A stretch of 64,000 bases of DNA, from positions 3,844,001 to 3,908,000 of the forward strand of contig JAKULF010000005.1 in assembly GCA_022661535.1 (NCBI GenBank), written 5' to 3'. Shown here piece by piece: positions 5,649-62,730 of this stretch. The position numbers were made by a program, and so were the translations under genes. Each line of letters begins with the position of its first letter. Positions within the stretch are counted from its first letter, which is position 1. The notes beneath the pieces were generated by a model. It saw only the letters and a list, made by a program, of their open reading frames with translations, did not search any database and had not been told where the DNA came from. Origin of the DNA: Eutypa lata (taxonomy: Eukaryota; Ascomycota; Sordariomycetes; Xylariales; Diatrypaceae).

Positions 5649-6522
5649 CTAAAAGAACTTGCTGTCCAGCTCGCCCTTAGTATTTCCGATCTGCACTTGA
5701 TAGACATAGGCGTCCACCACCACGCCCTCACCGCGGTAGGCGCCGAACTTGGGGTCGCTCCGGCCCGGGAACATGTTGCCCTCGACGACGTTGGTGCCCG
5801 AAGTGGAGAACGTGACCGTCTCGCCGCCCCACCACAGCTTCACGTGGCCCCCGCTGCTCTTGGCCAGGATCTCGAGGCCGACGGTGTAGGTGGTCTCGGG
5901 CTTGATCGCCGTCTTCCACTGCGGGGCACGGCTGGCCCCGCCATCGGAGGAGTAGCCCAGCTGCAGCTCGCCGTCGCGGATCTCCAGCGACAGGGGAATG
6001 TTGGCGCCGCCGCCACCGCTGTTCGCCTCATACTCCTTCCACTGCCAGACCATGAGCGCGTGCGGCGTCGCCCCTAGCGAGAACTCATATCCGATGAAGT
6101 ACGTCTCTCCAGACTTCGTCTTCTTGTTGAGGGCATGGTACTCGGTACTGATTCGCATTAGTTACATCAAGCTGATGGACTGCCATGAAGACACCAGCAG
6201 GATCTTGTGGCAATTGCCAATTGGGTCTTGAACGAAATAGAACAACGAGGTCGGACAATGGATACCGGACTGCTTACCGGATGCTGGTTTCGTTGCGGTG
6301 GAAGTGGGCGCACTTGGTGCCGCGCCTGTCTACGTCGCTCTTGATGTACAGGCCGTCGCTATTCTCCTTCACCTTCACGCCTCGCTCGGCTTCTAGCTCG
6401 CGCGATCCGATCACAGCGGGATCGTCGCCGCGGGCCGCATTGTAGTCCACTAACAAAGCACTAGCGGCTAGGCTACTGAGAACGAGGATATTCAAGAGGG
6501 AAAGGGGGTTGATGCGGGCCAT
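5649..6522 (-). CDS. Secreted glucuronan lyase-like protein, polysaccharide lyase family 20
   Basis: Predicted extracellular lyase cleaving beta-1,4-glucuronan by beta-elimination, like the Trichoderma PL20 enzyme. Exons 6522-6278 and 6147-5649 splice (GTAAGC donor, CTAAT branch, CAG acceptor) to 247 residues, the usual PL20 size. Residues 1 to about 24 form a signal peptide with a hydrophobic core (ILVLSSLAASALL). The jelly-roll body carries strong family blocks: TEYHALNKKT, GETYFIGYEFSLG, ALMVWQWKEYEAN and GNMFPGRSDPKFGAYRGE near the C-terminus. Without the splice neither half is a full domain. It stands alone between a pseudogene and a repeat-rich region. Glucuronan lyase is the best-fitting activity; the exact substrate cannot be read from sequence. 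Confidence 0.87.
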
Positions 6523-8946: not shown

Positions 8947-11594
8947 TTACCAAAAATCCCCCGTCCCGCGGCTTAATCCGTTATAACCTTGCCCGAACCC
9001 GTATCCAAAGAGTGACGCGAACTCGTCCGCGGGTGGCGGTAAACCGGACATGCTCCCATCCGCAGCAAATATTGGTGCAGCAGATTGGACTGGCGCAATA
9101 CCATTTCTTGCCGTGTTCATGAAACCTTGCGAAAAGTTGGCCGGCTGTGGAGGCAAAGGCATCGAGGCACCTAGGGAGGAGCTCCCCGCCTCCTGAACAG
9201 ATGAGTCGGTCTTCCATAGCTTCTCCCACTGCTTGAAGCGTGCGTAGTCCGTCTCAGGCGTGGCACCAGTCACATCTTCGGTGGCGTCCAGCCTGGCGAT
9301 AGCGCGCTCGAATGCCTCGATAAGCGACGCCTCAGCACGTGCAGATTCGCCGCCCGCCGCCATCTCTTTTATCATCCCCATGCCGTAGCGCAACGAGTTT
9401 CGCAGGCGATCCGTCTTCTTCTGCAGGCATTGAGTGATGATCACGAGGAGCGCGGCACGACAGGCGCTGAACTCTGTGTAAGATGCGCGTGCGAGCCCGA
9501 CTGTATTTCGAAGGAGATGGCACGTGTCGATAATTGTCAGTGCAGCATCAACACAGTCCGTGACAAGGATCGATCGCTGGTTCGTTCGGCCGGATGTGGA
9601 TGACCGAGGTACTGAATCCGCGGGAGAAGTCGAGACGTTGGCATTACTTCTCGTTGATTCTTTCGGGAAGATGAAAGATCGACCGGCAAACATGCGAACG
9701 AGGCAGTACTCGAGCTTCAGGTGCATGTTAGGGCGAGAGACAGAGGACTGTACACTGGCATCTTTTTGAAATATGTCGTCAGGAAGAGACTCCCACCATC
9801 TGAGAAATTTGTCTTTGATCTCTACAAGTTTTGTCAGGCCTTCTGGCATCTCATGTTTTGCCTGCGTCCTGAGGATGAAACTGTGCCGAATGATAAGCAT
9901 GCATAAAAGAAAGGGTTAGATCGACTTCATGCTTACATCTCGTGAGCTATTGTCCCCAAGACCTGGTTCAAATGCAGCGTTGCCATCATACGACGGTAAT
10001 GTAGCGGTGGACTCAGTGGCCACATATCTGAACAATCGACGGGCATTTCCGCGTCGACATCTGAACTTGAAATCGAGATTGGTCTACCATGAAATATGCC
10101 AACCCGCCTAGTAGTATTCGTTAGACAACCCAATTATAATGCCCAGGGAGTTTTAATCGGACGTTACTTCTCTATCGTGTAAGCAGTCCACCACACGCGA
10201 TTTCTGGTCTCGCGGACAACTGGGTCTAGCCCTTCCCCAGTATATTTCCTATGCATGCCATTCTGTATAGCCAATTTGACTGCAAGGTTTAGGTATATAT
10301 ATGACAAACCAGATGCGTCAAGCGGCAAGGTGTATAAACCAATGAGGAGACACGCCTGAACGCTCTCTAGCGAAGCGATCGTAATAACATCGGGCACGAG
10401 CCGACATGCCTGCTGGTAGAACATGATGCCAACAGAATCCTCTGAGAAGGGGCCAGGTCCAGGGGATGGATCATGAGATGAATCGCCATTGCACTCATGT
10501 TGAGAATCGAGGTACGCATACTGCGTGCCAATTGCGAGGATGATGAACAGCATGCATACAGTTCCGACGTCGCGTCGAGAAAGTGATTGAGCATTCTCGT
10601 AGGCCATCTTGAGCTTGCCCATCAACCAACCTCGTTCGACATAAAAGTAGTTCGTCTCGGCATGCTTGAAGAATGCCTCGACGAGGTAAGTAGCTACATA
10701 GCGAGGAGGAAGTGAAGCCAGCGAAGTGAGTGTATCTGAAGATGACTGCAGCTCTTCAGGGCGGTAATACTCCTTGATTCTGGGATCTTGTGTGGCATCC
10801 TGTAGATATAATTAAGCCCTGTGAATGGGTGGATTTAGCGAAAGCTCAATACGTACATTTCTATCCGGATCTGGTACACACTGCTCAACCCATTCCTTGA
10901 TTCGCATGGAAAAGTTCCAATGCGAGAACTCGCCGGAGTAATCTACATCCGGTATCCGTTAATGGACCTATATTGGGGCATCAACCGGGGCTGTCACTTA
11001 CGTGTGATGTTATTTTCGAGCGGCTTGACGGTGAAATTTTCATCGTCTACTCCAAGGCAGCTAGAACTATGTGACTGTACATCAAGTAGCCTGGGTCTAC
11101 TTTGTTGCTTATCAACGGATTCCGCTAAGTTCCGAAGAGTCTCTGCATCTAGATTGCTATTACCGATATAATGAGACAGTATCTTCTCCATATAGTCAAG
11201 GCGTTGCTCAATTCCCATCGATCCCTGCGGCCTGGAAGGGGGATCTCTACTAAGAACAGTCAGTAAACGAGGTTTGCCTATTGGGTCGCCGCTTTGTGGA
11301 GTATTACTCCGGGGTTTCTACCTAGTAGCTGTAAGTTCCGGCCCGGTGTCGCTACCTCTGATCGGCGGCCGGATGAACTCGCATCGCTGGTGCAGCCGCA
11401 TGCATCTCCGACACGGCACGCCTCCGTCGCATTTCTCTTTCTGCTTTCTGCAATTGTCGCAGCTTTAGGTGCAAATAGTTGAGTAACATATCGTGAGTGG
11501 TGGAAGGGTTTGTGGCTTACGCTCTAATGGCCCGTTTACGATCCCTTTCTGCCACCCGACGCTGCCTTTGTCTCTGAATGTTCTCACTATCCAT
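8947..11594 (-). CDS. Zn2Cys6 (Gal4-type) transcription factor with fungal_trans domain
   Basis: Nuclear DNA-binding regulator. Exons 11594-11521, 11462-11322, 11249-11002, 10942-10857, 10799-10168, 10107-9937 and 9880-8947 splice in frame to 761 residues; all six introns are GT-AG. The zinc cluster spans residues 26-52: Cys 26, 29, 36, 42, 45, 52, the exact C-x2-C-x6-C-x5/6-C-x2-C-x6-C spacing, reading ACDNCRKQKEKC and GGVPCRRC. It is preceded by a very basic stretch (RQRQRRVAERDRKR). A linker with a heptad-like segment (IEQRLDYMEKIL) follows. The fungal_trans region covers roughly residues 190-450, with the hallmark NRVWWTAYTIEKRVGIFHGRP crossing an intron (shown here in part: GIFHGRP is the classic end). 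The C-terminus is Gly/Pro/Phe-rich. It is the only regulator next to the 12-24 kb catabolic genes and is the likely pathway-specific activator. An apparent stop after the zinc cluster lies inside intron 2. Confidence 0.9.
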
Positions 11595-12241
11595 CGAGGT
11601 TCAAGCGACACCTGTGCGTAGTATCCAATCACTGGGATCCGCCCAGCCCTGTATATAAAGGTTTGTGCTGCAACAATAGAGTCGCAATGCATTCAAATGT
11701 ACTACTTCTGCACAGCTGAATGTCACTGCGATGCAAGGTTAAGGTGCTTATCACAACTCTACTCGAACTACTGAGACCCCAGTCATTAAAAAAAGGCAAT
11801 GAGCTCCGAAACTGGAAGCGAGTAATGTCCGATACCTACTAGAGTCTAGGTGTGCCTTAGTACGCCTATACCACGTGAAAGCAGGTGGATTCACTGGTCG
11901 GAGGCTAATCAGACTAGTGCTCATATGTATCTCTAGGAGGTAGCGTATGAAAGATCTTAACAGGATACACACAAATAAACAAATTGGTCTCTTATTAATG
12001 TTACAACGTCTCCAATAAAAGTTCAGAGGCAGCATCGTGACGTTCAGTGCATAATGAGGCATAGTTAACTCTAGTTACGATGCAACTATTATAGATAAAA
12101 GCGACTTAATAAAAAATACATATTCAATTCAATGTGCTCAGCTAGGCCATTTTATGGATCGTTCGTCAAAAGACGCCACTATATGATTATCCATCCATCA
12201 TTCATGCCACTCCCAGGGGCCTACATCTGTTCCATTGCCCT
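11595..12241. other. Intergenic between regulator and MFS gene
   Basis: Holds the promoter of the regulator gene and the 3' end of the MFS gene, both on the minus strand. No third gene recognised. Confidence 0.5.
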
Positions 12242-13942
12242 TCAAACTTCGCTAGCACGGGGTTCCCGGCCTTCTAGGACTGCTTGATCGCGCGCCAACA
12301 TCTCCAACTCCGCCTTCGTTCGTCCTTCCTTGGGTAGGTACTTAAAGGCGATAGGGATACAGATCGCCAGAAGTGTACCGAAACCAGTGAAAGCACCAGT
12401 GGTGGCAAAGCCCTTGACGAATTGAGGCCCGTCACTAGTTGGCCAAAGTCGGCTGCCGTAGACGGCTGACAAGTTGCCCACAGAGTTTGTCAGGGCCACG
12501 ACAACGGCACGCTTCTCCGCCGGCAGATCTATCACCTCCGAGGCCCAGTTGAGGATCAGTGGCAGGGCCGTGTAGAGACCAGCAATGTAGAAGCACAGCA
12601 TGACGTACTGGACGATCGCATTCGATACGGCCACGCAAACGATCGTACAGATGAAGCTGAGGCCCAGACACCCTGCAATATGCCACCGACGGTCTCCGGT
12701 CTTATCGGCCGTCCACGAAAGGACGACGAGGAATACGGCGCCGACCATCCAAATGGGAATCGTCATGTACTGCGCAGTGGTGGACGCGTACCCCATGGCG
12801 GCAACAATGGTAGGAATGAAATAGGAGATCGTGCAGGAGCCGAGGTCCATGACGAACAGAACGACGAAGAAGTAAGTCCGCGGGTCAGCCAAGGCCGCCT
12901 TGACGGCTTGCCAGTGCGTGAGCTTCATGCTGTGTCGGGCCGCGCTGGTATTGCGATCGTGGATCATGCGGACGACAGCCAACTGGCGCTCTGCCAAGCT
13001 GAATCGCTTTGTCGTCTCGGGGAAGTCGAGCAGGATGAACTTCATGAAAAAGGCGAAGAAGATGGTGCAGCAGCCTTCGATGAGGTAAAGCCATCTCCAT
13101 CCACGGATCCCAGCCACCCCCTCCATATTCCCCGTGATTGCGCCAGCTAGGAGTCCGCTTACGGCGCCGGAGCAGACAGAGGCCGTGAAGAAAATCGAGA
13201 ACCGCTTTCCTAAGAGGATATTAATATTACATCATGCATTTCCGCACAGCTGATGCCGGGGGAAGACCAGGACTAATTACTCACCGACTTCACGCTTCTT
13301 GTACCAACATGTCATCACGTACAAAACGCCAGGGAACATTCCGGCTTCAATGCAGCCGAGGAAAAAGCGAATGACTAGGCCACCTCGATAGTTCTTCACT
13401 ACTGACATAACGGCGCAAAGAGTGCCCCACAGAACCATAATGATGGGGAGGTACCAGGAAGGGCGCGATCGCGTGAGGATCAGGTTTGAAGGAACCTCAC
13501 AAATCAAGTATCCGATAAAGAAGATGGAGACCAACATAGCATATTCTAGTGTCTGGTCAGCCTCACCAAATAGCACGCTGATAGAATTGGGAAAACATAC
13601 GTGAATCAGTCAGACCGAGGTCTGCATTCATGCCCGCGACTTTGGCATTACCCTGTTGATATCTCATTAGTTTCATTTTCTCGGGCATTATCTCTATCAG
13701 AATGCAGGACTCACAATGTTCTGTCGGTCGATGTAGGCCAAAATGTACATGAACCAGAGGGCTGGCAGCATATACCAGTCCAGCTTGCGGACCAGTCGCT
13801 TCTCCGCCTCTGTATCTGGTACATAGTCTCGCAGTGCCCGTTCGAGCTCTAATTGTTCTTCTGACAGGACGACCTTATCGGTATATTTGTCGTTACAATC
13901 AAGAGCTGGCGTAACAATCTCCTCTTTCTTAATGTCAGCCAT
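12242..13942 (-). CDS. MFS permease, anion:cation symporter (Dal5/allantoate permease-like)
   Basis: Plasma-membrane proton symporter of the major facilitator family, ACS group, which imports small organic anions such as allantoate, ureidosuccinate, nicotinate or pantothenate. Exons 13942-13715, 13652-13601, 13545-13285 and 13209-12242 give 502 residues, a normal ACS length. Motifs: EKRLVRKLDWYMLPALW before TM1, YIDRQNIGNAKVAGM (the D-R-x-N-x-G-N-A signature crossing intron 1), LICEVPSNLIL, and RFFLGCIEAGMFPG in TM4-5. A 48-55 nt intron 2 is needed to restore SQYAML. The N-terminus starts MADIKKEE and is cytosolic. Divergent from the dehydrogenase at 14929 across 986 bp, it probably supplies the substrate of the neighbouring catabolic genes. 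The substrate itself cannot be read. Confidence 0.92.
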
Positions 13943-14928
13943 GGTCGAAATGTCAGCAGATGCTTCTGAACAGGACTCTGGATCGGGCTTTGATCAAGGG
14001 TGGTTGTTGCAATGGACGTGACGTGGATGAGGATCCCTTGCAGACCCGACCTCCTCTTTATACTAGGATTGATGTTTATCTTCGTTATTCTACCTTGAAA
14101 CACAGCGCTGCTTGTGAGCGTAGATAACAGATGACTAGGGAGGTATCCCTAGGCTATCTAACAAATGACATCTAGGTCCTCGGGTCCATCAACTTGCTAA
14201 TCAGGATCTACCTAGATTACGATCGGGACGCATTACCAGGCCCCCGCATTACATGCAACGACCACACAAGACATTACGCGCAGGTTTTCGTCACTATCGA
14301 GAGCCTTGTGCTGATAAGGTACGTCTCCAACGGCTCTTGACACTAGCTGCATTTAGTGTAATAATCAGTGACTGTCTCCGTCTGGGGAAAGCATCTAGCT
14401 TCGAGATAGTCGGAGATAGTTGTCGGGGAGCCGTGGCGACTCGGTACAACTACTAGCGCAAAACAGGTAAGTATGGCGGACCGGATATGCACACGAGTGG
14501 GACCGGCAATGAGATTCCCAGATAGCGGCTCGAAAAACAGGGCCTGTGATAACAGACCGGACCGGCTTGCTACCATACACCGGCAGACCGGTACGGTGCC
14601 ATTGTTGCCCCTGAATAGGCTTTAGCTCTTCGATGTGATCTCAGCTCTGTCTTGGCGCATCCCAGCTGACACTGAGGATCGTTGGAAGTAATCTTGGTGA
14701 GCCTGTGATCCGAACTCCGGTGTTGTATAGCCTCGCCAGCCGCGCGATAGCGCATGGCATTGACGAAACCGTGGCTGCTAGGTACTTTGTTGTCTATATA
14801 CTCTCTGTGAAAGCTGATAACCGATGTGATCCAGATTCTCGGAAGAATCAATTTCAAAAAGCTACTGTACCGTACTCACCCCCTTTATCAAAGTTTTCGT
14901 TCATTTTAATCAGCCTCTTGTGTCCATC
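13943..14928. promoter_or_regulatory. Divergent promoter between MFS permease and tartrate/IPM-type dehydrogenase
   Basis: 986 bp between two outward-facing starts. It contains a cluster of CCGG-bearing words: ACCGGCA at 14502-14508 and 14579-14585, plus tandem ACCGG at about 14556-14565 and ACCGG again at 14587-14591. CGG/CCG words are the usual half-sites of Zn2Cys6 proteins. Assignment as regulator sites is inference. Confidence 0.45.
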
Positions 14929-16064
14929 ATGTCCAATCATACTAAGACCTACCGTATTGCAGCAATCCCTGGTGATGGGATTGGTATAGAAGTAGTTGAA
15001 GTCGCTCTTGAGGTTCTTCAAACAGTCGCCAAAGTCACTGGAAGCTTCACTGTCGAAACCACTAAACTTCCCTGGGGAAGCGCATTCTACAAGAAGAACG
15101 GCTACTACCTTCCACAGGACTTTTTGGGTACCCTGAAGGCATATGATGCTATCCTCTTTGGAGCTGTCGGCGCGCCTGGTATGTGCACACGGAACACCGT
15201 TTATATTTATTCGTATGCTTACAATGACCGTCAGACATCCCGGATCACGAGTCGCTCTGGGGTCTCCTTTTGAAGATGAGGGGACCCATGCAGCTCTATG
15301 CCAATATGAGGCCGATCCGGTGCTTCACCAAACCTCGCCTTGAAGGCGCGGATCCCGCGCATTTGGATTGGCTCCTAGTGCGGGAGAGCAGCGAGGGCGA
15401 GTATTCCGGGCATGGAGGCCGCTCGCATATCGGGCAAGAGTGGGAGGTTGCGACGGAGACCAGCATCTACACCCGCTACGGGGTCCGTCGCATTATGCGG
15501 CAAGCGTTTGAGGCCGCCAGCAGGCGGCCGCGCAAGCACCTGACCGTGGTGAGCAAGTCGAACGCCCTGCGCCACGGGCTGGTGCTCTGGGACGAGATCG
15601 CAGCCGAAGTGGCCGCCGGGTTCCCCGGTGTGACCTGGGACAAGGAGCTCGTGGATGCGATGACTATCCGCATGGTCCAGAAACCGTGGACGATCGATAC
15701 CGTGGTGGGCACAAATTTGCATATTGATATATTGTCCGATTTGGCCGCAGCACTAGCAGGATCCATCGGGATCGCGGCGTCGGCGAACTTGGACCCTACG
15801 AGGACCAACCCATCGATGTTCGAGCCGGTGCATGGCAGTGCGTTCGATATCATGGGTAAGGGCATCGCCAACCCAATTGGCGCTATCTGGGCGGCTGCTG
15901 ACATGATCGCTTGGCTGGGCGAGCAGCCGGCGGCGGATCGCATCATGGGTGCAATTGCGAGTGTGTGCAAGGACGGCAAGGTAACTGCTGATATGGGAGG
16001 CACATTAAATACGAAGCAAACAGCAGAGGCTATTTGTGAGGCGATAGAGTCTCGCAATACGTAA
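14929..16064 (+). CDS. Tartrate dehydrogenase/decarboxylase-like (isopropylmalate-isocitrate dehydrogenase family)
   Basis: NAD-dependent oxidative decarboxylase acting on a 2-hydroxy dicarboxylic acid; closest in style to tartrate/D-malate dehydrogenases (TtuC/YeaU type). Exons 14929-15178 and 15235-16064 (donor GTATGT, acceptor CAG) give 359 residues, full family length. Motifs in order: IAAIPGDGIG at the start, AILFGAVGAPDIPDHESLWG across the intron, RESSEGEYSG, a KSNALRHG lysine block, DAMTIRMVQKP, DILSDLAAALAGSIG, and FEPVHGSAFDIMGKGIANP (here cited by key residues H and D). The block before DILSD reads NLHI rather than the common NLFG, and SAFD replaces SAPD, so substrate binding may be unusual. 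Convergent with the ALDH gene (322 bp apart). Confidence 0.88.
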
Positions 16065-16385
16065 TAATGTATGAATATTTGATTCTGTCTAACTATAATT
16101 GTACATAACAGCGTAGTCTCCAATCTTCATGATCAGTAGTGTGGACCTTTGTAGATGTTATAAATGCTAGTTTCCTGGGTAGATCCGATCCTGGATTGTG
16201 ATTTCACCCGATTCCGTTGAAAACGTCAGGGTAAAGAACATTGCTACAAATAAAATGATTTCCTAATTCGGTCAGTAGTTAGGTGGTAACTAATATGAGG
16301 TAATTTCCGCTTTCAGTACACCAGTTTTACATGGTCGCTAGAAAAGTGTTGTCTAGTACGTTATCTCTCTTTGCTAAACTCCAAT
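16065..16385. terminator. Convergent 3' region between dehydrogenase and ALDH genes
   Basis: 321 bp between two stop codons facing each other. It should contain both polyadenylation regions; no single signal stands out. Confidence 0.35.
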
Positions 16386-18030
16386 CTATGCCTCAATTCC
16401 AGTCATAATCATTTTTGTGATGGTAAATTCATCAATACCGTACTTGCTGCCCTCTCTTCCAAACCCGCTCTGTTTCACTCCGCCAAATGGAGCAGCTGGG
16501 TCGCTGATAGCCCCTGCGATGTATGTTAGTATGGCTCGGGAACAGCAACAGAAACACTACTCACCAATATTAACACCAACCATGCCGACCTCCAAAGCCT
16601 CAGCCACTCGCCAGCACCGACTCACATCCTTGGAGAAGAAATATCCTGCAAGCCCAACATCGGAATCATTCGCCAGTGCGATGGCTTCCTCTTCAGTCTC
16701 GAACTTGAACAACGCGGCTACAGGGCCAAAGGTCTCTTCCCAGCAGATCTTCATGCCAGGTTTCATGTCAGCAAGAACTGTGATACCAAAGAAATTAGGT
16801 CCTATGTCCGTTAGAGGCTTGCCACCATACAACACGCGGGCGCCTTTCGACACGGCATCTTGCACGTGATCCGCGACTTTCTGGGCCGCACGGCCATGAA
16901 TCAGGGGGCCGTGGGTTGTGTCAGACGCGAAGCCGTCGCCGACCATAAACCCTTTCACAGTATCCACCACCATCTTCACGAACTTGTCATACACAGCTGA
17001 ATGCACCAAGATACGATTGGCACAAACGCATGTCTGCCCCGAGATGCGGAACTTGGAGGCAACAAGACCACGAATGGCAGCGTCGAGATCCGCATCTTCA
17101 AAGACGATGAATGGGGCGTTTCCGCCCAGCTCAAAAGAGAGCTTTTTCAGAGTGGACGAGCACTGGTTCATCAGCAGCTTCCCGACGCCGGTCGAGCCGG
17201 TGAAAGAGACCTTCTTGATAATCGGGTTCGTGGTCAAGACCTGGCCTACTTTGACTGTGTTGTCCAAAGCGGTAATCACGTTGACCACACCGGGCGGTAT
17301 TCCGGCCCTGTGCGCAAGCTCGGCGAGGGCGAGGGCGGTCAAGGGGGCTTCGGCGGGTGCTTTGATGACCACTGTACAGCCAGCGGCGAGGGCTGGGCCA
17401 GCTTTGCGAGTGATCATGGCGGCCGGGAAGTTCCAAGGTGCAATAAGGCCGCAGACACCTATGGGCTCTTTTATCGTGACCAGTCGACAAGCCGGATTGG
17501 TTGCCTGGATTGTGTCGCCGTATATACGCGGAGCTTCCTCCGAGAACCACTCGAAGAATGATGCTGCATAGTTGACTTCAGTTCTGGAGTCAGCCAGAGG
17601 CTTGCCGTTCTCAGCCGTGATAATCGTCGCCAAATCCTCCGTGTTTTCGATCATGAGATCGTACCATTTCCGCAACAAGCGAGCCCTCTGGCGCGCTGGA
17701 GTTTTCCTGTACGATTTGAAGGCGGCATGAGCAGCCTCGATGGCCAGCTCGGTGTCCCTGTCATCAAACTCAGGACACTGTACCACTTCAGCCAGCGTAG
17801 AAGGATCTATGAAGGGTAGTTAGTTGATTGCGCTAGGATCAAATGAAGCAGGTTGACTTGCTGTCTACAGAGAATAATCTCCCCGACTGTGCGAGAACCC
17901 AGTTTCCATTAACATAGCATGATGTTTTCAACAGCGAGGGGTCGTTCAGCTATGAAAGGAGTTAGTCCTGGTTCCAATCGTAATTTATATCTCCGTAATT
18001 AGAGAGTACCTGTAATGTTGTTGACGCCAT
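16386..18030 (-). CDS. Succinate-semialdehyde dehydrogenase-like aldehyde dehydrogenase
   Basis: NAD(P)-dependent oxidation of an omega-semialdehyde to the acid; by motif and neighbourhood succinate semialdehyde to succinate. Exons 18030-18010, 17949-17862, 17806-16565 and 16513-16386 yield 492 residues. The intron at 17861-17807 is a GC-AG intron (donor GCAAGT); only this donor keeps the frame, giving [13 protein letters not shown]. Catalytic residues are the general base Glu262 in [10 protein letters not shown] and nucleophile Cys296 in [10 protein letters not shown], where the second Cys two residues on is typical of SSADH. The cofactor-site motif FTGSTGVGK is at about 238-246. The C-terminus [15 protein letters not shown] is standard. 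A divergent partner of the GABA transaminase with a 612-bp shared promoter, so the two form a GABA-to-succinate module. The short first exon (7 codons) gives MASTTLQ, with no clear mitochondrial presequence. Confidence 0.93.
17807..17861 (-). other. GC-AG intron in the SSADH gene
   Basis: 55-nt intron with donor GCAAGT, branch-like CTAAC and acceptor ATAG. The nearby GT donors (GTAGAC, GTCAAC) both break the reading frame, whereas GC gives a normal ALDH N-terminal sequence. Confidence 0.8.
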
Positions 18031-18642
18031 TGGAAAATATTCGGGTGATAATATCTAGGTACACTCTATATTCGAGGATTGAGTAAGGTCAAGTGTTCAA
18101 CCTGTTGGCTTCTCTGTAGACTCGAACGTGGCAGGTCTATCATATACGGAAATCGTTCAAAAAGCCTCTTCATGTGCTCCAGTGTAGTGCCACATCTACT
18201 CGTCCATGGCCGCTCCCGGTCATTGCTGGAGTGGACCCAGCCATTTTGTGCCGGCCCGGAAGTACGAGTTGCACGCACAATTCACAGCGCTTGGATTTTA
18301 GCTACTATGTAAATATCCAACTCCGCTAGAAGCACATAAGATCAACGAATGTGTCAAGCTATTGAAAAGAGCAGCATGCTATACGTCTAGATGCGAGTCG
18401 AGAACGCCGCCGGCGTTCTGACCGGGCTGGTGATCCGGCTGGTGTGGGTCGAAAACTTGACCAAATTAGGAAGGTCCACGCGAACAACAACAGGAGGCTC
18501 TCTTCTTGAAGCTCCGTTATAAGGCGAAATTCCTTACCATCGCGGATTTTTTGATTTTTTTCCACAGACAAGATATACCAAGCATCTACAACCTCAACGC
18601 AACGACTAAGCTTCATACTCACTAAAAATTTGATCAATAATT
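18031..18642. promoter_or_regulatory. Divergent promoter of SSADH and GABA transaminase genes
   Basis: 612 bp separate the two ATGs. In the middle sits a GC-rich palindrome (18401-18419) followed by a direct repeat GGCTGGTG at 18425-18432 and 18437-18444. The layout suggests joint induction of the two genes. Confidence 0.6.
18401..18419. promoter_or_regulatory. UAS-GABA-like palindrome AGAACGCC-GCC-GGCGTTCT
   Basis: A perfect inverted repeat with 8-bp arms and a 3-nt centre. Its core GCCGCCGGCG matches the core of the yeast UGA upstream activating element (RCCGCSGGCG, CCG-N4-CGG type) bound by the Zn2Cys6 protein Uga3. It lies 371 bp from the SSADH start and 224 bp from the GABA-T start. Function is inferred. 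Confidence 0.55.
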
Positions 18643-20414
18643 ATGACGGCTATTCTCGACAACACGGTTTCGACCGAGGTCCCTGGACCCCTATCCCAGG
18701 CCAGCGCGAAGAAGCTGGACGCCTTCTTCGACGCGCGTGCCGTGCATTTCGTGGTTGATTATGACAAGAGCGAGGGAACATAGTATGTAATACCACGGCA
18801 TCACTGTCGTCCATCGGGTTAACCATTGTTGTACAGCATTGTTGATGTCGATGGCAACCGTTACCTTGACGTGTATTCGCAAATTGCATCTATTCCCATC
18901 GGGTACAACAACCCCGCTAGCATTGCTGCCGCCCAGTCTCCAGAGATGCTATCAGCTCTGGTGAACCGGCCCGCAATTGGAAACTTTCCCTCGCGTGTAT
19001 GGGGGGAGATCCTCGAGGGTGGGCTACTAAAAGTTGCGCCAAAGGGCCTAGACCAGATTTTCACTGCCCAGTCCGGCTCCGAGGCCAACGAGCTTGCCTT
19101 CAAGGCGTCCTTCATGCTCTACAGACGGAAGGAGCGCGGACATGGCGTGGAGTGGTCTAGTGAGGAGGTCGCGTCTTGCCTCGACAACGCTAAGCCCGGC
19201 TCCCCAGAGCTGGCTGTTATGAGTTTCAGAAACTCGTTCCACGGACGCGGCTTCGGTAGTCTGTCGACGACGCGATCAAAGGCCGTCCACAAGCTTGACA
19301 TCCCTTCTTTTAACTGGCCTCAGGCGCCCTTCCCAGCTCTGAAGTACCCTCTAGAGAAGTACGAGACGGAGAATAACGCCGAGGAAAAGAAATGCCTGCA
19401 GGCAGTCGAAGATTTAATCAAGTCTTGGTATGTTTCTCCTTAAAGCTACCAATAGGATGTATACTGATGTATATCAGGCACTGTCCTGTAGCGGCACTGA
19501 TAGTGGAGCCTATTCAGAGCGAAGGTGGTGATAACCACGCCTCTCCGGCGTTCTTCCAGGGCCTGCGGGACATTACCAAGAAACACGGTGTGGTCATGAT
19601 CGTGGACGAGGTTCAGACAGGTAAGCAAGACTCCCGATAGATTTTGTCTTATTACAATATTAACGGTACGCCTTAGGGTTCGGAGCCACTGGCACGTTCT
19701 GGGGCCACGAGCACTGGAACCTAACGTCGCCCCCTGACATCGTTACATTCTCCAAGAAAGCCCAGACTGCTGGTTACTTCTTCGGAGATCGTGCGTTAAT
19801 TCCCGATAAGGCTTACAGACAGTTTAACACGTAAGTCTTCTCAATGAACTGACTTATCTGTGAACGACCCTAACATACAATAGGTGGATGGGAGACGCTG
19901 CCCGTGTCATTATGAGCAAGGCAGTCATCCAAGAGATCCTCGATAAGAACCTCGTCGGACAATGCGTAAGTGACATCAATTTAGCATAATTTAATACAAG
20001 CCTCAAATCTTTGCTAACAGACAAAAGGCCCGTGTGGGAGAAGCGCTGTACGCCGCCATGGAGAAGCTCGCTCAGAAATATCCCGACTACGTGCAGAACC
20101 TGCGCGGAAAGGGCCAGGGGTAAGACCAAAAATTACAGTTCTCTTCTCCTGCCGATTTTCGCTGACACGTGTAAAAAAGTACCTACATCGCCTTTGATAC
20201 CAAAGATGCCGGTGCTCTTGTGAAGTCGATGAAGAAACGTGGGGTTCTGACGGGTACCTGTGGAAAGGAGACTGTCAGATTACGACCCATGCTTATTTTC
20301 GAGGAAAAGCACAGTGAGTTTGAATTTATCATGATTGGACAACCGGTTTTGCTAATCTTTATAACAGTTCCAGCTTTGATCGCTGCCTTTGATAAGGTAC
20401 TTGGGGAGTTGTAG
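18643..20414 (+). CDS. 4-aminobutyrate (GABA) transaminase
   Basis: PLP-dependent class III aminotransferase moving the amino group of GABA to 2-oxoglutarate, producing succinate semialdehyde for the divergent dehydrogenase. Eight exons (18643-18782, 18837-19427, 19478-19620, 19677-19830, 19884-19965, 20028-20119, 20180-20313, 20368-20414) join in frame to 460 residues, the size of fungal GatA/UGA1. Motifs: GYNNPASI near the N-terminus, [18 protein letters not shown] at the phosphate site, [21 protein letters not shown], and cofactor Asp287 in [10 protein letters not shown]. The Schiff-base lysine is in FSKKAQTAG (Lys318/319), and RLRP lies near the end. No clear mitochondrial targeting peptide, in line with cytosolic fungal enzymes. 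A second, accessory copy relative to a housekeeping gatA elsewhere is likely but cannot be shown from this window. Confidence 0.95.
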
Positions 20415-21294
20415 GTAGTCTTAAAAGGGATCATGTGTTTTGGGGATATCATACCCGTTCCTCCGCGCCATTTATTTATTTTACATTTGCATAGGTAGCA
20501 TTTTCGGTAGTTTAAGGAAATCAGCCCTTCTGTCCTTCATTGAAGTTTCAATAAGTTACATAATTTAGCAATGTTCCTTTCGCGATGTCAATATAACCAA
20601 GCCACGAAGTATGTATGGCGTTGTAGGCCTATGGCAAAAATACGCCACGAAAACCTCCAGCCCGGATCTGCCACGTACGGAAGTGAGAGCACTGCAAGAA
20701 TTCATCTTCAGAATATGATGCCTCCATACAGGCTTCTTCTTCAACCTAGTATTTTGACCCGTGACTGCTATAAACATCTCTAGTGTATTGGATCGCATGG
20801 CTACCCCGATACACTGGGTAGATAGTAGGTAGGTTGGGCTGAGTATTTCTTGTACTATGACATAATGATAAACATCTTACATAATAGTCAGTAGATATTA
20901 CTTGACCTTGCATAAATTCTTTCCAACTAATGCAACTCTTCACATCTAACAGCAAGTGCACCTTAATAAATGGGTTTGGATATCAACCACTATCCGGTCC
21001 TCAAGGGCACGCCGGGTCGGGCCCATGGCAATGGAGCCGCTATCTTGCGGGGAAATTTCTGGGACCGGAAGCTAGCGCCAGATTCCTTACACCGGAGATT
21101 GATACGATTGCATTCATATCGACACCTAACGATTCATTATATGACGGAGTGGATGGTCATCGATGAATGCACATCGTTGCATCACGGCCACGATCTATCC
21201 TAGGAATCGCAGTATTAAAGACATATAAATCCGGCTAGCATTCAAGCACTAAACAAGGTCCCTCCTATACGTCCACTTCTTCACTCCCATCCCA
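20415..21294. other. Spacer with promoter of the HAD gene
   Basis: 880 bp without recognisable coding sequence. CCGG words (TATCCGGTCC about 20991, GGACCGGAAG about 21061, CACCGGAG about 21091) resemble those in the neighbouring promoters. Confidence 0.4.
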
Positions 21295-22087
21295 ATGGCT
21301 TTAAGTAGAAAGCATGTTGTATTTGACGTCGTAGGAACTTGCATGTCCTACGATGCGATATTTGATGCGATTGACACAAGGCTTGGCGACCGGCTGCGAG
21401 CCGAGTGCATTAAGCCCAAACTTCTAGGATACACATGGTTCGAAGCTGCCGAGAGAGAGTACACATACCTAAGCATCTCGGGGAGGTACAAGCGTTTCTA
21501 CGACGTGTTCACAAGCTTGTTCTACCGCATGCTCTGGATGGCCGGCATCGAGGAGCCGCGCGAGTTCGCGACCGACGAGGACCTGGGGTACATTCTCGAG
21601 CAATTCATGAAGCTCGACGCCCGCCCCGGCGTTGCCGAGTGCTTCCAGATCCTGCGCGACGCGGGCTTCACCTGCTGGGCGTTCACCGCGGGCGACACGA
21701 AGCGCGTTAGTGGGTACTTTGCCCGCAGCGGCATCGATATGCCTGCCGAGAACTTCTTATCGTGCGATAGTCTCGGCATTGGCAAGCCGGCGCCGGAGTC
21801 TTATCAACCGCTCCTGAAGCAGTTTGGCGCCGACGAGTCATGGTTTGCCGCAGCGCACATGTGGGATGTGTCGGCAGCAAAGAGCACCGGGTACGTCGAG
21901 CGATTGAACTCTCCTGCGGTACCACTTATAATAATGCTAACAAAAACATAACAGGTTTAAAGGGGCCTATTGTACAGTGTGGGAGAAGGAGCCGTGTACT
22001 GATCTGTTTGGCGAGATGGATGTGATGGCAGATAGCTTCCCGGACATGGCTCGGAAGATAGTCAATGCTTCCAAGGTCGGATCGTAG
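21295..22087 (+). CDS. Haloacid dehalogenase-like hydrolase, type II (2-haloacid dehalogenase-like)
   Basis: HAD-superfamily enzyme of the subgroup that includes L-2-haloacid dehalogenases; the true substrate could be a halogenated acid or a phosphate ester. Exons 21295-21890 and 21955-22087 (donor GTACGT, acceptor ACAG) encode 242 residues. Motif I VVFDVVGTCMSYD carries nucleophile Asp11, and its D-x-x-G-T lacks the second Asp used by phosphatases, which favours dehalogenase-type chemistry. Motif II is AFTAGD, motif III Lys is in GIGKPAPESY, and motif IV AHMWDVSAAKSTG has the acidic residue and the helix start. A helical cap lies between motifs I and II (about residues 20-110). It is co-oriented with GABA-T and the FAD oxidase, so it probably belongs to the same pathway. 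Confidence 0.87.
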
Positions 22088-22719
22088 ACATTGCGATAGC
22101 AAATATACAATCTATACATAGTAGCAATACCTTAAATTATCTAGTTACCCAGACTGGTTTCGTCAATGGGTACTAGGCGTAGCCGGTTGACGAACCACAA
22201 TTACTACGGTAAACCGGCAATCTGCCGGTCCAAGTCCGGCTTGGGAGATAGTGTAGAGATAAGCGTCCAAAGTTGTTGTACGAAGTATTATTAGGACACG
22301 GCCTATTGGTAGAAGAAATTCCAGTTATAGTAAGGATCGCTTGAGCGTCCCACCGGCTTAGGCTGGGCCAGTCAGGGACCCTTTTAGTGGTAATGGTCGG
22401 GCCGGTGCGTGATTCCCGCCCAACCCGCCTATCAACAACGGTGTAGGTCGTACCTAGGTAGTCACCTCTAGGTGCTGCGATATGCGTGGTAATAATTAGA
22501 TGCCGCTTCGAATAACATGAATAATTGATTCACTACAATATTTAATATACCGAAACGAAAGACAGTGGAAGGCAAGTTGCGAGACACATAATTAAGGTGT
22601 TAAGCAACCCACTCATAAACATCCATCAAGACTTTTACACTTCGGCTGTTATTACTCTTATTCTAAAGTCAACTAGTATATGCATATATAAGCCGACTTC
22701 ACAGAGACCTCATCCTGCA
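22088..22719. promoter_or_regulatory. Promoter region of the FAD oxidase gene
   Basis: 632 bp. It holds a perfect palindrome ACCGGCA-ATC-TGCCGGT at 22213-22229, further CCGG words at about 22235 and 22352-22402, and a TATA-like TATATAAG at about 22684-22691, roughly 30 bp before the start codon. Confidence 0.5.
22213..22229. promoter_or_regulatory. Palindrome ACCGGCA-ATC-TGCCGGT
   Basis: 7-bp perfect arms around a 3-nt centre. The half-site ACCGGCA also occurs at 14502 and 14579 in the MFS/dehydrogenase promoter. Candidate Zn2Cys6 operator; the function is inferred. Confidence 0.45.
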
Positions 22720-24278
22720 ATGGCCGGAAAGCCACAATCAAAGTGTCTCTCTCCAGTTGCCAATCCGGTAGCATCGTTTTGGACTATACCGCCGCACGGC
22801 CTTGATGACCACCGTAGCACACCAGATCTCCCAAGCGTGAGCGACGTGGTGATTATCGGCGCTGGATTCGCAGGGGTCGCCACAGCATACCACTTATTCA
22901 AAGACAACCCGAACCCGCCATCTGTTACCCTGCTGGAAGCCAGAAAGGTCTGCTCCGGGGCGTCGGGCCGCAACGGTGGCCACGTTAAGCCCGACACCTA
23001 CTTCAACGTGCCGAAGTACACCAGGCTATATGGTGCAAAGGCAGCAGCCGAGTTAGCCGCTTTTGAAGCTTCACACCCATATGCAGTGAAAACCCTCGTA
23101 GAGAGCGAGAGATTGGATTGTGATTTCCACCTTACGCGTGCTGTGGACGTGTATCTGGACCCTGAGCATGCGAGAGTCACCGAGGAAGCCTATCGGAAAC
23201 TTTTGAATGACGGTGTGGTGGATCTCAAGGACGTGGCGTTCACCCCTAAGAAAGACGCTGAAAGAGTAAGCCCAGCACTCGGAAACCTTTGGCCGAGCAT
23301 CATGCGTTAACCACTCAGGCGATCAAGATTTGAAAGCAATGTACTTATACTTTAAAAATAGATATCAGGGGTTAAGGGGGCCCAATGCTGCTTCTCCTTT
23401 ACAGCAGCCCATCTTTGGCCGTTAAAGATGGTCCAACAACTAGTCGAGAAGCTGCTGGAGAAGGGTCTGAATCTGCAGGCCAATACACCTGTGAAATCGG
23501 TGTCGTCGACCAGAAACTCCCAGGGACTTTGGACCATCGAAACAGAGCGCGGTACGATTGCTGCTCACAAAGTAGTCTACGCCACAAATGGCTACACGGC
23601 ACAGGTTCTGCCCGAATATACCGGCCGTATTGTTCCTGTTCGTGGCATCTGCAGCCGTATCGTCACCCCCCGAGGTCCGAACAGTCCGCATCTGGTGAAC
23701 ACCTACGGGATCCGGTTTGACTCCAGCAACAACGATTACCTCATTCCGCGCGCGGACGGGAGCATCGTGGTCGGGGGCGCTAGGCAGAGGTTTTGGCACG
23801 TGCGGGACCAGTGGTTTGACAACGTTCGAGACGATGAGCTCGTTGCCGACGCAGTTTCGTACTTCGACGGCTACATGCAGCGTCACTTCCGGGGTTGGGA
23901 GGCTAGCGACGCCAAGACAGACCACGTGTGGACTGGCAGTGAGTTGCGCCCAATCCGTTACTCGCTTAGTTAGGTAGAGACAATTTCTGACTATATCCAA
24001 CAGTTATGGGCTACAGCTCCGACTTCTTGCCGCATTTGGGCGAGGTCCCAGACAAACCCGGCCAGTATATCATCGCTGGGTTCTCGGGCCATGGCATGCC
24101 TGAGATTTTGCTCTCAAGCAAGGGCGTGGCCGCCATGGTGCGAAATGGAATATCTTTTGAGGAGTCGGGACTACCTCAGATATTCAAAACATCGACGGAG
24201 CGAATAACGAATGCTAAGAGCCCGCTAGAGGAATCACTACAACCATTATGGAACGGTAATGATAGAGCAAAACTCTAG
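22720..24278 (+). CDS. FAD-dependent amine/amino-acid oxidase (DAO family, gamma-glutamylputrescine oxidase-like)
   Basis: Flavoprotein oxidising a C-N bond of an amine or N-substituted amino acid with release of an aldehyde or oxo acid and H2O2. Exons 22720-23265, 23362-23938 and 24004-24278 splice to 465 residues. The Rossmann dinucleotide motif VVIIGAGFAG is at 43-52, followed by the acidic residue in TLLEARKVCSGASGRNGGH, the second FAD-contact block. The middle has AAHLWPLKMVQQL and NTPVKSV, then VVYATNGYT. The C-terminal FAD-closing block is IIAGFSGHGMPEI. Intron 1 is taken with the acceptor at 23361 because it alone gives the family-like ERISGVKGA. No signal peptide and no peroxisomal SKL; the end reads RAKL, a weak PTS1-like tripeptide (AKL). 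Within the cluster it is the most likely first enzyme, delivering an aldehyde or GABA-type product. Confidence 0.88.
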
Positions 24279-25213
24279 CCGCAGCCGTATTGCGTGCGTT
24301 ACCTATGGGCAATGAAGCATCCAGTGATATGAGGATAAAGAGTATTATGCACTCGTGGAAATATATATCAAGTATTTAATGAGTAGGGCCTGATCAACAT
24401 TTTTAGGGGTATATTCATGTCCAATTGTCAGCTACTCTAGGACCTGCTTCGCAAATTAATAGACATCAGACATTCACCCCGTCATGAATACAGTGCGCTT
24501 CCACGTTCGTTTTTATATAATAGTCACCCTGCACCGATTCACCCCCCTTTTCCTTCTGGTTAGTAATTTTTATAGTTACATTTCTCTAGTGAAGAGCCAT
24601 TACGCACCATCCTTCTAGCAGTATCAACATACTTTACATATGTACCTGTGCCCAGTAAAATTAAATCACATCTATTAAGTGGCTAAATTCAGAACAAGAG
24701 AATCGTTCATTCTTATCCAACCAAGGGATAGCTGAGACCAAACATCCAAATTAGGAAAGGATTGGTGTTCACGGTTGATTTGCGCTAGATTTCATCGTGG
24801 CGCTTGCGGGAACCAAACGTATCTGGCATTTTAGACGTCATAGGGCTTAGTTGAGCCTGATTGGGTGCAGGCAGCGGCAACCCTCACAAAGAAACAAGGG
24901 GTTTCGTCATTCAGGAAGGCGGCAGGGCGGCTGTGTCGTCCAGTCGCATAGGCACTCAACGATAATTACAGTCAGCAGCAAACTTGGTAATTGATTGATC
25001 TTTCAGCTTCTTCTATTTACACAATTCTTAGTCGTATGCATTATCCTACTTCGTTATTTTGAATTGCGACCTATTGCTGTGAAGGCGCTTTGTTGACAAA
25101 GTACGACGGGGGGCCTTTGTTTAATCTTGAAGTTTGAGATTCAGTTACAGTCGGGACTTGAAGTAAAGTAAGAAAAGAGAGGAATAGATAACAACATTGG
25201 CTTCAATTCAATC
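24279..25213. other. Intergenic, right border of the catabolic cluster
   Basis: No gene recognised. Marks the change from the catabolic genes to an unrelated membrane protein gene. Confidence 0.45.
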
Positions 25214-26337
25214 ATGGGTGCAGATTGTACATCCGTGCCCGACAATGTGCAAAGCGATGCAGGCGTCGCGGGCATAGGCGTAAGTTGATGTTCCTTACCT
25301 CATCCGATGCCTCCATCTGTACTCTCGCTTGCATCAACGATAGACTGACCTTGCGATATTTGGCAACAACACAGGTCCTCCTCTCCTTCATCGTAACAGC
25401 CGCCATCGCATTGACGCTCAGCGCGACCCTGATCATGCAAGAGATGCGCACCTCCCTCTCCTCCTCCTCCTCCTCCTCCGCCTCCTCTTTCCGGCCCTCG
25501 GTCCTGCGCCGCAAGCTGCTGAACGCCTACTCGGACCAGCAGATCCTCACGGGCATCGGGATCCAGGGCGTGGGGCTGGCCAAGACGTCGACGATGGCCC
25601 CCTACCACTTCTTCATCATCTGGATGCTGTCGCTGCTGTCGATGGCGGTCCACAACGCCACCCTACTGGCGCTCGTGCACGACTTCCGCCGCGACTGGGT
25701 CCTGCGCTGGCTGCGCCAACTGCTCATGTTCGGCAACCTCGCCCTCTCGTGCGTCTACGGCGTCTTCGTTCTACGCGGCGTGCAGACGGGCCTCAGCGAC
25801 TCGACCCTGCCGGTCGCGTGCGTCTGGAGCCCCGATGTGCCCCCCGACGCGAAGACGACGGGTCCGAATGTCGGCACCTCGTACGTGGGCACCATCGCCG
25901 TCATAGCGGGCAACGTGGTTGTGTTTGCTCTCAGCACGTGGTACCTGCACTCGCGGACGCAGAGGTTCTACAAGGTCATCCAGCTGGTCGGAATGGTGCT
26001 CATGACGGCGAGCGCGGTGGGCGCTACAGCCCGGGTTATCATCATGGCTCAGGCATTCGGGACCCCACCCGTCCCTATGAGCGACGAGGGCGAGCGGTCC
26101 TGGAGTTTCGGCTCGCTGCTCTCCATCGGGATGCTGCTGCTGCCTCTCGTCTCTGCCGTCGAGATCCTCCGGGGTGAAATCAAGTGCGCCCCTCCCGTGA
26201 GCGATGATGAGGGGGCTTCTGATAAGACGGCATTGCTCGATGGTGCGAGTGAATTGCGGGATAGGACCGGCGGAAATCGGTCCAGCTTTCAGCCTATCCC
26301 CTTTGATGGCTTTCGGGCCAGCCGATTCAAGAAGTGA
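25214..26337 (+). CDS. Fungal polytopic membrane protein of unknown function
   Basis: Exons 25214-25279 and 25375-26337 (donor GTAAGT, branch CTGAC, acceptor CAG) give 342 residues. The N-terminus MGADCTSVPDNVQ with AGIGVLLSFIVTAAI after the splice is a pattern I know from uncharacterised fungal multi-span proteins. About seven hydrophobic segments follow, including FFIIWMLSLLSMAVHNATLL, LMFGNLALSCVYGVFVL, YVGTIAVIAGNVVVFALS, VIQLVGMVLMTASAVG and LLSIGMLLLPLVSAV. A poly-Ser stretch lies near residues 58-68, and a 45-residue hydrophilic tail follows the last helix. GIGIQGVGL before TM2 seems conserved in the family. No enzyme motif is visible; a receptor-like or transport role would be guesswork. 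Confidence 0.75.
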
Positions 26338-61059: not shown

Positions 61060-61470
61060 GATTTTTACCTTTTAAAATGTTATAAAATAACGCATTATAA
61101 TATATAATAATTCGTAATAAATTTAAAATATATTTAATAAATTTAAAACTTTATATACGTTAAATTTATAAATTAATATATAATTAAAAATTTTTATTAT
61201 TTTTTTAAATTTAAAATAAAATTATATAAATTAAAATTAATAAATTATTTTATAAAAATTATTTAATAAAAATTACTTTATAAATACGTTTAAATGCGCT
61301 TTTTATATATATATTATTATTATTATTTTAATTAAAAAAATTATAATATATAAAGTTTTTATTATATTAAATTATATTTATATAATTTTTTTATAAATAA
61401 TTAAAATTATAATAATAATAATAATAAAATATAATTAAAAAGAATTTATAAATTTATAAACTCAAAATTT
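61060..61470. repeat. AT-rich, RIP-like block (left)
   Basis: About 400 bp almost entirely A and T. The few C bases are mostly in CpG or in ACTT contexts. It is sharply bounded by normal DNA at both ends. Interpreted as saturated C:G to T:A mutation of former repeat DNA. Confidence 0.65.
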
Positions 61471-61771
61471 TGCCGACCGCTGCGGTGCAAAAAAGTACGG
61501 CCCTTCGCAAGCTCCGGGGACTTTTTTCCGACCTCCGGGATCGGCAAAATTTTGCGCCGCAGGCTGTAGCCTACTACGCCAGATCCGAAGAATCTAGCCG
61601 AAGAATTTATCCGAAGTCAAGGGCAGCTGACAATAACAGGGCCATTCGAATTGCGGTAGTACTTACTTTTACTTACAAACTCTATAGTAAATTATGTACT
61701 ACGGCAATTCGAATGTCTGGAAGATCCGAAGGATCCAGGCTGCGGGATTCGAATCTTTTTGCTCTTTCTTT

Positions 61772-61939: not shown

Positions 61940-62560
61940 CCGAGCTAGCTGGTTAAAAGCTAGGTAGGTGGTCAAAGCTGCCACCACCTAGCTGCACCCA
62001 CCTAGCTGCACCTAGCTGCACCACCTTAGAAATCCCTAAGTGGTCAAAGCTTTAGGGCTGTAATTTGTAGGTCTGTAGGTCCGAAAGGTGGCTAGTAAGT
62101 GGCTAGTAGGTCTGTAGGCTGTAGGTCTGTAGGCTACAGTAATCTAGCTGTTGCAGCTACCTATGTACAGCTGTAGGTCAGCTGTAGGTCTGTACGCTGC
62201 AGGGTAGGTCTGTAAGCCACCTAACTAGCTGCTGCCACCTACAGCTTTTAGACCTACAGCTGCTACAGCTACTTATATACAGCTGTAGGTCAGCTGTAGG
62301 TCTAAAAGCTGTAGGGCTGTAGGTTGTAGGGTAGGTCTGCAAGCTACCTAGCTGCTGCCACCGTACAGCTGCTACAGCCACCTACAGCTGTAGGTCTGTA
62401 GGTCTAAAAGCTATAGGGTAGGTTTGTAGGTCTGTAGGTTTAAAAGCTACAGGGTAGATCTGTAGGTCTGTAGGTCTAAAAGCTGTAGGTTTAAAAGCTG
62501 TAGGTCTAAAAGCTGTAGGTCTAAAAGCTGTAGGTTGTAGGTGGTCAAAGCTAGGTGGCC
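61940..62560 (+). repeat. Minisatellite AGCTGTAGGTCT(G/AAA) family
   Basis: Long array of AGCTGTAGGTCTGTAGG-type words, ending at about 62470-62530 in a 15-bp unit AGCTGTAGGTCTAAA repeated four to five times. CACCTAGCTGCACC-type words precede it. It shares words and order with 7690-8180. Confidence 0.85.
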
Positions 62561-62730
62561 CATAAAACCTGAAGGATGCACCCAATCAAAGTGCTGAATC
62601 TTTTTTAGGACCAATCAAAAGACTAGTGTCAATTAGCTTCGAACTAGCTCGGCACTAGGTCCTTATCAACCCAAAATCGACCAATCCGCGAAGGGTATCC
62701 TTATTAATATCCGCTATTCGTGCCAACCTT

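What the first reader, a model, noticed from the sequence alone, without database searches (positions are those of the whole stretch)
8947..24278. Compact accessory cluster centred on a GABA-to-succinate module
Seven adjacent genes encode a regulator, a Dal5-like permease, a hydroxy-diacid dehydrogenase, SSADH, GABA transaminase, a type II HAD enzyme and a DAO-type FAD oxidase. GABA-T and SSADH are normally housekeeping genes placed apart; here they are divergent neighbours inside a set with import, oxidation and regulation functions. The combination suggests a dedicated route for an amine or amino acid (perhaps halogenated, given the HAD enzyme) ending in succinate. I do not know this exact set as a described system; Fusarium benzoxazolinone clusters would be a useful comparison.
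Basis: partly seen in the sequence, partly recalled or inferred. Interest (0 to 1): 0.78.

Follow-up and report, generated by a model that had tools for sequence, protein, structure and literature searches.

The report
Fungal amine-catabolism gene cluster, substrate unknown
A fungal chromosome carries seven neighbouring genes that look like a self-contained kit for importing and breaking down one nitrogen-containing compound, probably ending in malate and pyruvate rather than succinate, and the exact compound remains to be found.

Summary
Seven intact genes (8947-24278) encode a Zn2Cys6 regulator, MFS permease, tartrate/D-malate-type dehydrogenase, SSADH, GABA transaminase, HAD hydrolase and DAO-fold amine oxidase. 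GABA-T and SSADH are extra copies; the window GABA-T belongs to a separate deep clade. It looks like one unit: the four structural promoters hold 25 CCGG sites against 9 expected (motif chosen after seeing it), the regulator's none. HAD and oxidase carry consecutive locus tags in 3 of 6 comparable fungi and are annotated as one polypeptide in 6 of 120 oxidase relatives; GABA-T and HAD are consecutive in Annulohypoxylon. A second, lone HAD-oxidase pair lies on another contig.

A 2-hydroxydiacid dehydrogenase in the unit suggests D-malate, then pyruvate, not succinate. The closest known logic is azetidine-2-carboxylate assimilation (HAD opens the ring to 4-amino-2-hydroxybutyrate, GABA transaminase follows), but this HAD is not an orthologue of azetidine hydrolase (12-16% identity, weaker structural match than haloacid dehalogenases). 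The Fusarium FDB passages read show none of the five enzymes. Substrate unproven.

The parts
8947..11594 (-). REG: Zn2Cys6 + Fungal_trans transcription factor, 757 aa, 7 exons
   Evidence: cysteine motif at residue 26
12242..13942 (-). MFS permease, 502 aa, 4 exons; divergent from TDH
   Evidence: (PF07690, 130.9 bits)
13943..14928 (.). Shared MFS/TDH promoter region, 7 CCGG sites
14929..16064 (+). TDH: tartrate/D-malate-type beta-decarboxylating dehydrogenase, 359 aa, 2 exons
   Evidence: TIGR02089 466.3 bits, cut-off 470.4; best solved relative tartrate dehydrogenase 3flk, E 9.7e-95
16386..18030 (-). SSADH, 492 aa, 4 exons (one GC-AG intron)
   Evidence: TIGR01780, over cut-off; GQTCVC and FELGG motifs present
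18031..18642 (.). Shared SSADH/GABA-T promoter region, 6 CCGG sites
18643..20414 (+). GABA transaminase, 460 aa, 8 exons; clade distinct from the genome's other copy
   Evidence: (TIGR00699, over cut-off)
20415..21294 (.). HAD upstream region, 6 CCGG sites
21295..22087 (+). HAD-fold hydrolase of the type II dehalogenase kind (no phosphatase DxD), 242 aa, 2 exons
22088..22719 (.). FAD upstream region, 6 CCGG sites including CCGGCAATCTGCCGG
22720..24278 (+). FAD-dependent amine oxidase of the glycine/sarcosine-oxidase fold (DAO family), 465 aa, 3 exons
   Evidence: fold modelled on P0121, 99% identical

Best explanation
The seven genes form one co-regulated catabolic unit for a single nitrogenous small molecule. 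The permease imports it. The FAD oxidase cuts or oxidises a C-N bond of an N-substituted amino acid, and the HAD enzyme hydrolyses a strained ring or leaving group at the carbon next to a carboxylate, giving a 4-amino-2-hydroxybutyrate-type product. The dedicated GABA transaminase turns that into malate semialdehyde, the SSADH into (D-)malate, and the tartrate/D-malate-type dehydrogenase into pyruvate and CO2. The regulator switches the genes on through CCGG-core sites. Shown: gene content, extra copies, promoter-site enrichment, recurrence of the HAD-oxidase pair, fold classes. Inferred: order of steps, the hydroxylated intermediates, the end product, and that the regulator binds the sites. 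The substrate is not identified.
For: Intact genes and families. Second GABA-T 61% and second SSADH 66% identical elsewhere in the genome; the window GABA-T lies across a long branch (0.5, support 100) from the genome's other copy. CCGG: 25 in four structural promoters against 9.0 +/- 2.8 in dinucleotide shuffles, 0 of 1000 reach it; REG promoter 0; 13 of 257 control 700-bp segments have 5 or more. HAD-oxidase link: 6 of 120 listed oxidase relatives carry both domains in one polypeptide, HAD first; 14 contig lengths shared between the two lists of 120; consecutive locus tags in 3 of 6 genomes whose visible tags allow the comparison; a second pair in this genome at C6:106868-110062. Whole-set link: GABA-T and HAD are ABKA04_001183 and _001184 in Annulohypoxylon; all three proteins share a contig in four species. 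Chemistry: HAD motif I is DVVGT without the phosphatase second Asp, and D11, T131, K164, H188, D191 are invariant in 34 of 34 aligned; the top solved relatives are haloacid dehalogenases and epoxysuccinate hydrolases; a related enzyme was trapped with (2R)-4-amino-2-hydroxybutanoate (title of 8hp7); a HAD hydrolase and GABA transaminase are needed for azetidine-2-carboxylate use in A. nidulans (PMC8016842).
Against: No enzyme assay, expression data or transcript support. The CCGG motif was picked after it had been seen in these promoters, so its count is optimistic; taken singly the promoters reach 27, 1, 29 and 7 of 1000 dinucleotide shuffles, and the MFS/TDH one 76 of 1000 base shuffles. The HAD is not an azetidine-hydrolase orthologue, so the hydroxylated intermediate is an analogy. 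The C6 HAD-oxidase pair has no other cluster homologue in the 30 kb around it and does not share the CCGG enrichment: most sites there lie in coding sequence. The dehydrogenase has at least three relatives in the genome at 47-64% identity, one of them near an MFS gene, so MFS+TDH could be an independent tartrate/malate module. In 3 of 6 genomes with visible tags HAD and oxidase tags are not consecutive, and in Neoarthrinium the GABA-T and HAD tags are far apart (JX265_012662, JX265_007161). Sharing a contig is not adjacency for the large contigs.
Confidence: 0.42

Rival explanations
1. One reading: an amine or amino acid is converted to GABA and then through succinate semialdehyde to succinate; the dehydrogenase and permease serve a separate acid.
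For: GABA-T and SSADH score above the curated cut-offs for the GABA and succinate-semialdehyde families; five of the six GABA-T motifs checked are identical in window copy and other copy, the sixth differs by one residue (GSEANE/GSDANE).
Against: Family level cannot tell GABA from hydroxylated GABA. The dehydrogenase shares the CCGG-rich promoter pattern, which ties it to the unit; no enzyme in the unit obviously makes plain GABA.
Confidence: 0.25
2. L-azetidine-2-carboxylate itself (plant proline analogue) is the substrate: HAD opens the ring to (R)-4-amino-2-hydroxybutyrate, GABA-T, SSADH and D-malate dehydrogenase finish it; the oxidase releases azetidine-2-carboxylate from N-substituted forms.
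For: AzhA and GatA requirement in A. nidulans (PMC8016842); R-configured trapped product in 8hp7 would give D-malate, a substrate of this dehydrogenase kind (recalled); no clear azetidine-hydrolase orthologue among the three other type II HADs examined.
Confidence: 0.15
3. Tartrate/epoxysuccinate unit: HAD hydrolyses an epoxysuccinate to tartrate, the dehydrogenase oxidises tartrate, the permease imports it; GABA-T, SSADH and oxidase handle the amine half of an epoxysuccinyl-amine.
Against: Haloacid dehalogenases match slightly better by Z; no peptidase or amidase among the seven genes to split such a compound.
Confidence: 0.1
4. Chance neighbourhood of three independent two-gene modules (MFS+TDH, GABA-T+SSADH, HAD+oxidase).
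For: Each pair is compact; HAD+oxidase occurs without the rest on C6 and a TDH relative lies near an MFS gene on C8.
Against: All four structural promoters share the site enrichment, with the caveat that the motif was chosen after the fact; GABA-T and HAD have consecutive tags in Annulohypoxylon; four species keep GABA-T, HAD and oxidase on one contig.
Confidence: 0.08

Closest known systems
Azetidine-2-carboxylate assimilation (Pseudomonas AC hydrolase; A. nidulans AzhA + GatA)
   Same: HAD-fold hydrolase feeding a GABA transaminase; toxic or unusual plant-derived nitrogen source (PMC8016842)
   Different: HAD not orthologous; in A. nidulans the downstream step uses the general GABA pathway, here a dedicated GABA-T, SSADH, dehydrogenase, permease and regulator are clustered, plus an amine oxidase
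Bacterial putrescine (Puu) pathway (recalled)
   Same: DAO-fold amine oxidase, aldehyde dehydrogenase, GABA-T, permease and regulator in one unit; some fungal relatives of the oxidase are named gamma-glutamylputrescine oxidoreductase by their depositors
   Different: No ligase (PuuA) or gamma-glutamyl hydrolase (PuuD) among the seven genes; extra HAD and 2-hydroxydiacid dehydrogenase
Fusarium FDB1/FDB2 benzoxazolinone clusters
   Same: Accessory fungal catabolic clusters with a Zn2Cys6 regulator and transporters
   Different: FDB1 table lists NmrA-like, MFS, amidases, dienelactone hydrolase, metallo-beta-lactamase, amino acid transporter, salicylate hydroxylase and Zn2Cys6; none of the five enzymes here; FDB2 list not seen in full
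L-2-haloacid dehalogenases (Rhodobacteraceae 2yml/4cf5, Zobellia 7arp) and cis-epoxysuccinate hydrolases
   Same: Fold and, by inference, nucleophilic-Asp chemistry; His188 lies opposite a His of 2yml in the alignment, and a His mutant (H190A) was studied in the Zobellia enzyme (title)
   Different: About 20% identity; separate fungal subfamily; substrate unknown

Membership tests
Azetidine-2-carboxylate hydrolase / AzhA | Orthology to Pseudomonas AC hydrolase (AzhA is 44.5% identical to it) | tested here: not met
Azetidine-2-carboxylate hydrolase / AzhA | Ring opening of azetidine-2-carboxylate to 4-amino-2-hydroxybutyrate | not testable with these tools
   needs enzyme assay
Type II HAD C-X hydrolase (fold class) | Nucleophilic Asp in a DxxGT motif without the phosphatase second Asp, plus Thr, Lys and Asp motifs (definition recalled) | tested here: met
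NCBIfam TIGR01428 haloacid dehalogenase type II | Score over the curated cut-off of 125.4 bits | tested here: not met
   83.0 bits
Eukaryotic GABA transaminase (TIGR00699) | Score over the curated cut-off | tested here: met
   712.7 vs 567.2 bits
Succinate-semialdehyde dehydrogenase (TIGR01780) | Score over the curated cut-off | tested here: met
   678.8 vs 646.4 bits
Tartrate dehydrogenase (TIGR02089) | Score over the curated cut-off | tested here: not met
   466.3 vs 470.4 bits, just below; still the best NCBIfam match, and tartrate dehydrogenase is the best PDB match
Fusarium FDB1 cluster | Metallo-beta-lactamase, amidase and dienelactone-hydrolase genes | tested here: not met
   none among the seven Pfam assignments against the FDB1 table
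Puu pathway | gamma-glutamyl-putrescine ligase and gamma-Glu-GABA hydrolase in the unit (recalled) | tested here: not met
   seven genes, none of these families

The most novel reading that the evidence does not exclude
A dedicated fungal pathway for azetidine-containing plant metal chelators (nicotianamine or mugineic-acid type): the amine oxidase cleaves the N-substituted chain, releasing azetidine-2-carboxylate and 4-amino-2-hydroxybutyrate or malate-semialdehyde pieces; the HAD opens the azetidine; GABA-T, SSADH and D-malate dehydrogenase take all pieces to malate and pyruvate. Nothing in the evidence excludes it, and it uses every enzyme in the set. The chelators' structures are recalled.
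Probability: 0.08. Interest if true: 0.8.

Novelty: new variant of a known kind. Interest (0 to 1): 0.5.

Why it matters
Fungal clusters that degrade unusual plant nitrogen compounds help decide which hosts and niches a fungus can use, and many lack a known substrate. Here a HAD-amine oxidase couple recurs in several fungi, sometimes annotated as one protein, and the papers listed by eight literature searches did not describe it. Naming its substrate would give a function to a large fungal protein family now labelled '2-haloacid dehalogenase' or 'hypothetical protein'.

Tried and rejected
In plasmids, 53 records matched, 30 were listed, all at 29.7% identity or less; the four neighbourhoods read list no GABA-T, SSADH or DAO oxidase. 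Fungal genomes are not in the collections; co-location across fungi was inferred only from locus tags and equal longest-contig lengths.

AzhA orthology: first assumed, then rejected. Three other type II HADs of this genome were compared with the PDB; none is a clear azetidine-hydrolase orthologue, one is close to fluoroacetate dehalogenase 4A. The remaining, weaker HAD places were not examined.

The C6 oxidase promoter seemed at first to share the CCGG motif (top control segment); reading it showed that most sites are in coding sequence, so this was dropped.

HAD-oxidase single polypeptides: three of six junctions (P0130, P0144, P0152) contain a Met where the oxidase would start, so some may be merged gene models; they are used only as evidence of adjacency.

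Trees used a quick search without bootstrap: 45 of 120 GABA-T relatives; 40 of 120 HAD relatives plus the six fused ones cut to 235 residues. The Dothideomycete Aaosphaeria groups with Microdochium in the GABA-T tree (99) and among Sordariomycetes in the HAD tree (weak): a hint of horizontal spread, not tested further. Thozetella's HAD falls in another HAD subgroup, so its shared contig is weaker evidence.

PMC8022950 and PMC5371717 were seen in passages and are not about it.
Full report
What is there. Spliced models give seven intact proteins between 8947 and 24278, each with the expected Pfam family above its cut-off. Order and strand: regulator (-), permease (-), tartrate/D-malate-type dehydrogenase (+), SSADH (-), GABA-T (+), HAD (+), DAO-fold oxidase (+). 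Two divergent pairs share promoters: permease/dehydrogenase (986 bp) and SSADH/GABA-T (612 bp). Open frames on either side (5649-6161 -, 25192-26337 +) match no Pfam family and were not counted as members.

Whose genome. The assembly has 54.5 Mb in 29 contigs. The oxidase is 99% identical to one of Eutypa lata UCREL1 (P0121); HAD and GABA-T are 96% and 93% identical to Annulohypoxylon sp. FPYF3050 (lists show one representative per 90% cluster). The organism is therefore probably a Xylariales fungus near Eutypa (lineage of Eutypa); this is inference.

An extra pair. The genome holds a second GABA-T at C8:4616964-4618380 (61% identical over the main match; same contig, about 0.75 Mb away) and a second SSADH at C5:4958524-4959969 (66%). 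In a tree of 47 rows (45 of the 120 listed relatives, the window copy and the other copy) a branch of length 0.5 with support 100 separates the window copy's clade from the clade of the other copy.

Co-regulation. The four structural promoters hold 7, 6, 6 and 6 CCGG sites, 25 in all, against 9.0 +/- 2.8 in dinucleotide shuffles (0 of 1000 reach 25); singly 27, 1, 29 and 7 of 1000 shuffles reach the observed number; the regulator's promoter has none. Of 257 control segments of 700 bp and similar GC, coding ones included, 13 have five or more. CCGGTC and ACCGGC are the most enriched hexamers. The motif was noticed in these very promoters before it was counted, so the numbers are optimistic. Binding by the cluster's Zn2Cys6 protein is inferred.

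Recurrence in other fungi. No fungal genome collection was available, so three lists of 120 proteins were compared. Six of the 120 listed oxidase relatives carry DAO and HAD domains in one polypeptide, HAD first, although some junctions look like merged models. HAD and oxidase lists share 14 contig lengths, three of them short (9,155, 28,090 and 43,116 bases); oxidase and GABA-T lists share six, HAD and GABA-T five, and all three four (Aaosphaeria arxii, Sarocladium implicatum, Thozetella, Cyphellophora europaea). Aaosphaeria is a Dothideomycete and Cyphellophora a Eurotiomycete. Visible locus tags: HAD and oxidase consecutive in 3 of 6 comparable genomes (FSARC_13219/13220, ACJ41O_012259/012260, AAFC00_005022/005021; not Plec18167, M1834, N7468); GABA-T and HAD consecutive in 1 of 2 (ABKA04_001183/001184; not JX265). 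Within this genome a second HAD-oxidase pair sits at C6:106868-110062, with no other homologue of the window proteins in the 30 kb read around it.

How it probably works. Type II HAD enzymes leave a 2-hydroxy acid (recalled). If the product carries a 4-amino group, GABA-T gives 2-hydroxy-4-oxobutyrate, SSADH gives malate, and a dehydrogenase of the tartrate/D-malate type gives pyruvate. The configuration fits: a related HAD was trapped with (2R)-4-amino-2-hydroxybutanoate (title of 8hp7), which would lead to D-malate. In A. nidulans a HAD hydrolase (AzhA) and GABA transaminase are both needed to use azetidine-2-carboxylate as nitrogen source, and 2-hydroxy-4-aminobutyrate is given as the product of the Pseudomonas enzyme (PMC8016842: abstract, introduction, one results section, first part of the discussion and passages seen). 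The present HAD is not the orthologue of that enzyme, so the parallel is one of working principle only. This reading explains why a 2-hydroxydiacid dehydrogenase sits in the unit, which 'ending in succinate' does not.

Verdict. A real, accessory, probably co-regulated catabolic cluster; not found described in the papers listed by the eight searches; substrate open. The FDB clusters are not a match as far as seen (passages only of PMC4726666 and PMC10512309).

Noticed in passing
L047 2841-6086 (C6:106841-110086): Isolated second HAD-oxidase pair (HAD 52-66%, oxidase 34-56% identical by segment); the HAD upstream region contains a run of TTGACTTC repeats.
   Followed up: partly
L057 (C8:5515001-5525000): A relative of the dehydrogenase (54-63% by segment) lies within 3 kb of an MFS gene 26-32% identical to the cluster's permease, with a weak regulator match nearby: possibly a separate tartrate/malate module.
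   Followed up: no
L063 (C10:5931101-5932000): A HAD open frame strongly resembling fluoroacetate dehalogenase 4A (9c9e, 172 bits).
   Followed up: no
window 61000-61499 and 62500-63999: GC falls to 0.05-0.24 in 500-bp windows next to stretches of 0.46-0.51: strongly AT-rich blocks.
   Followed up: no
window 29802-31649 (-): PDR-type ABC transporter piece (ABC2_membrane, PDR_CDR); further long open frames up to 35058 on the same strand look like more of it, by eye only.
   Followed up: no
P0246, P0006 (Aaosphaeria arxii): Dothideomycete copies of GABA-T and HAD group with Sordariomycete sequences, a hint of horizontal spread of the cluster.
   Followed up: partly
window 17807-17861 (-): The SSADH model needs one GC-AG intron.
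   Followed up: no
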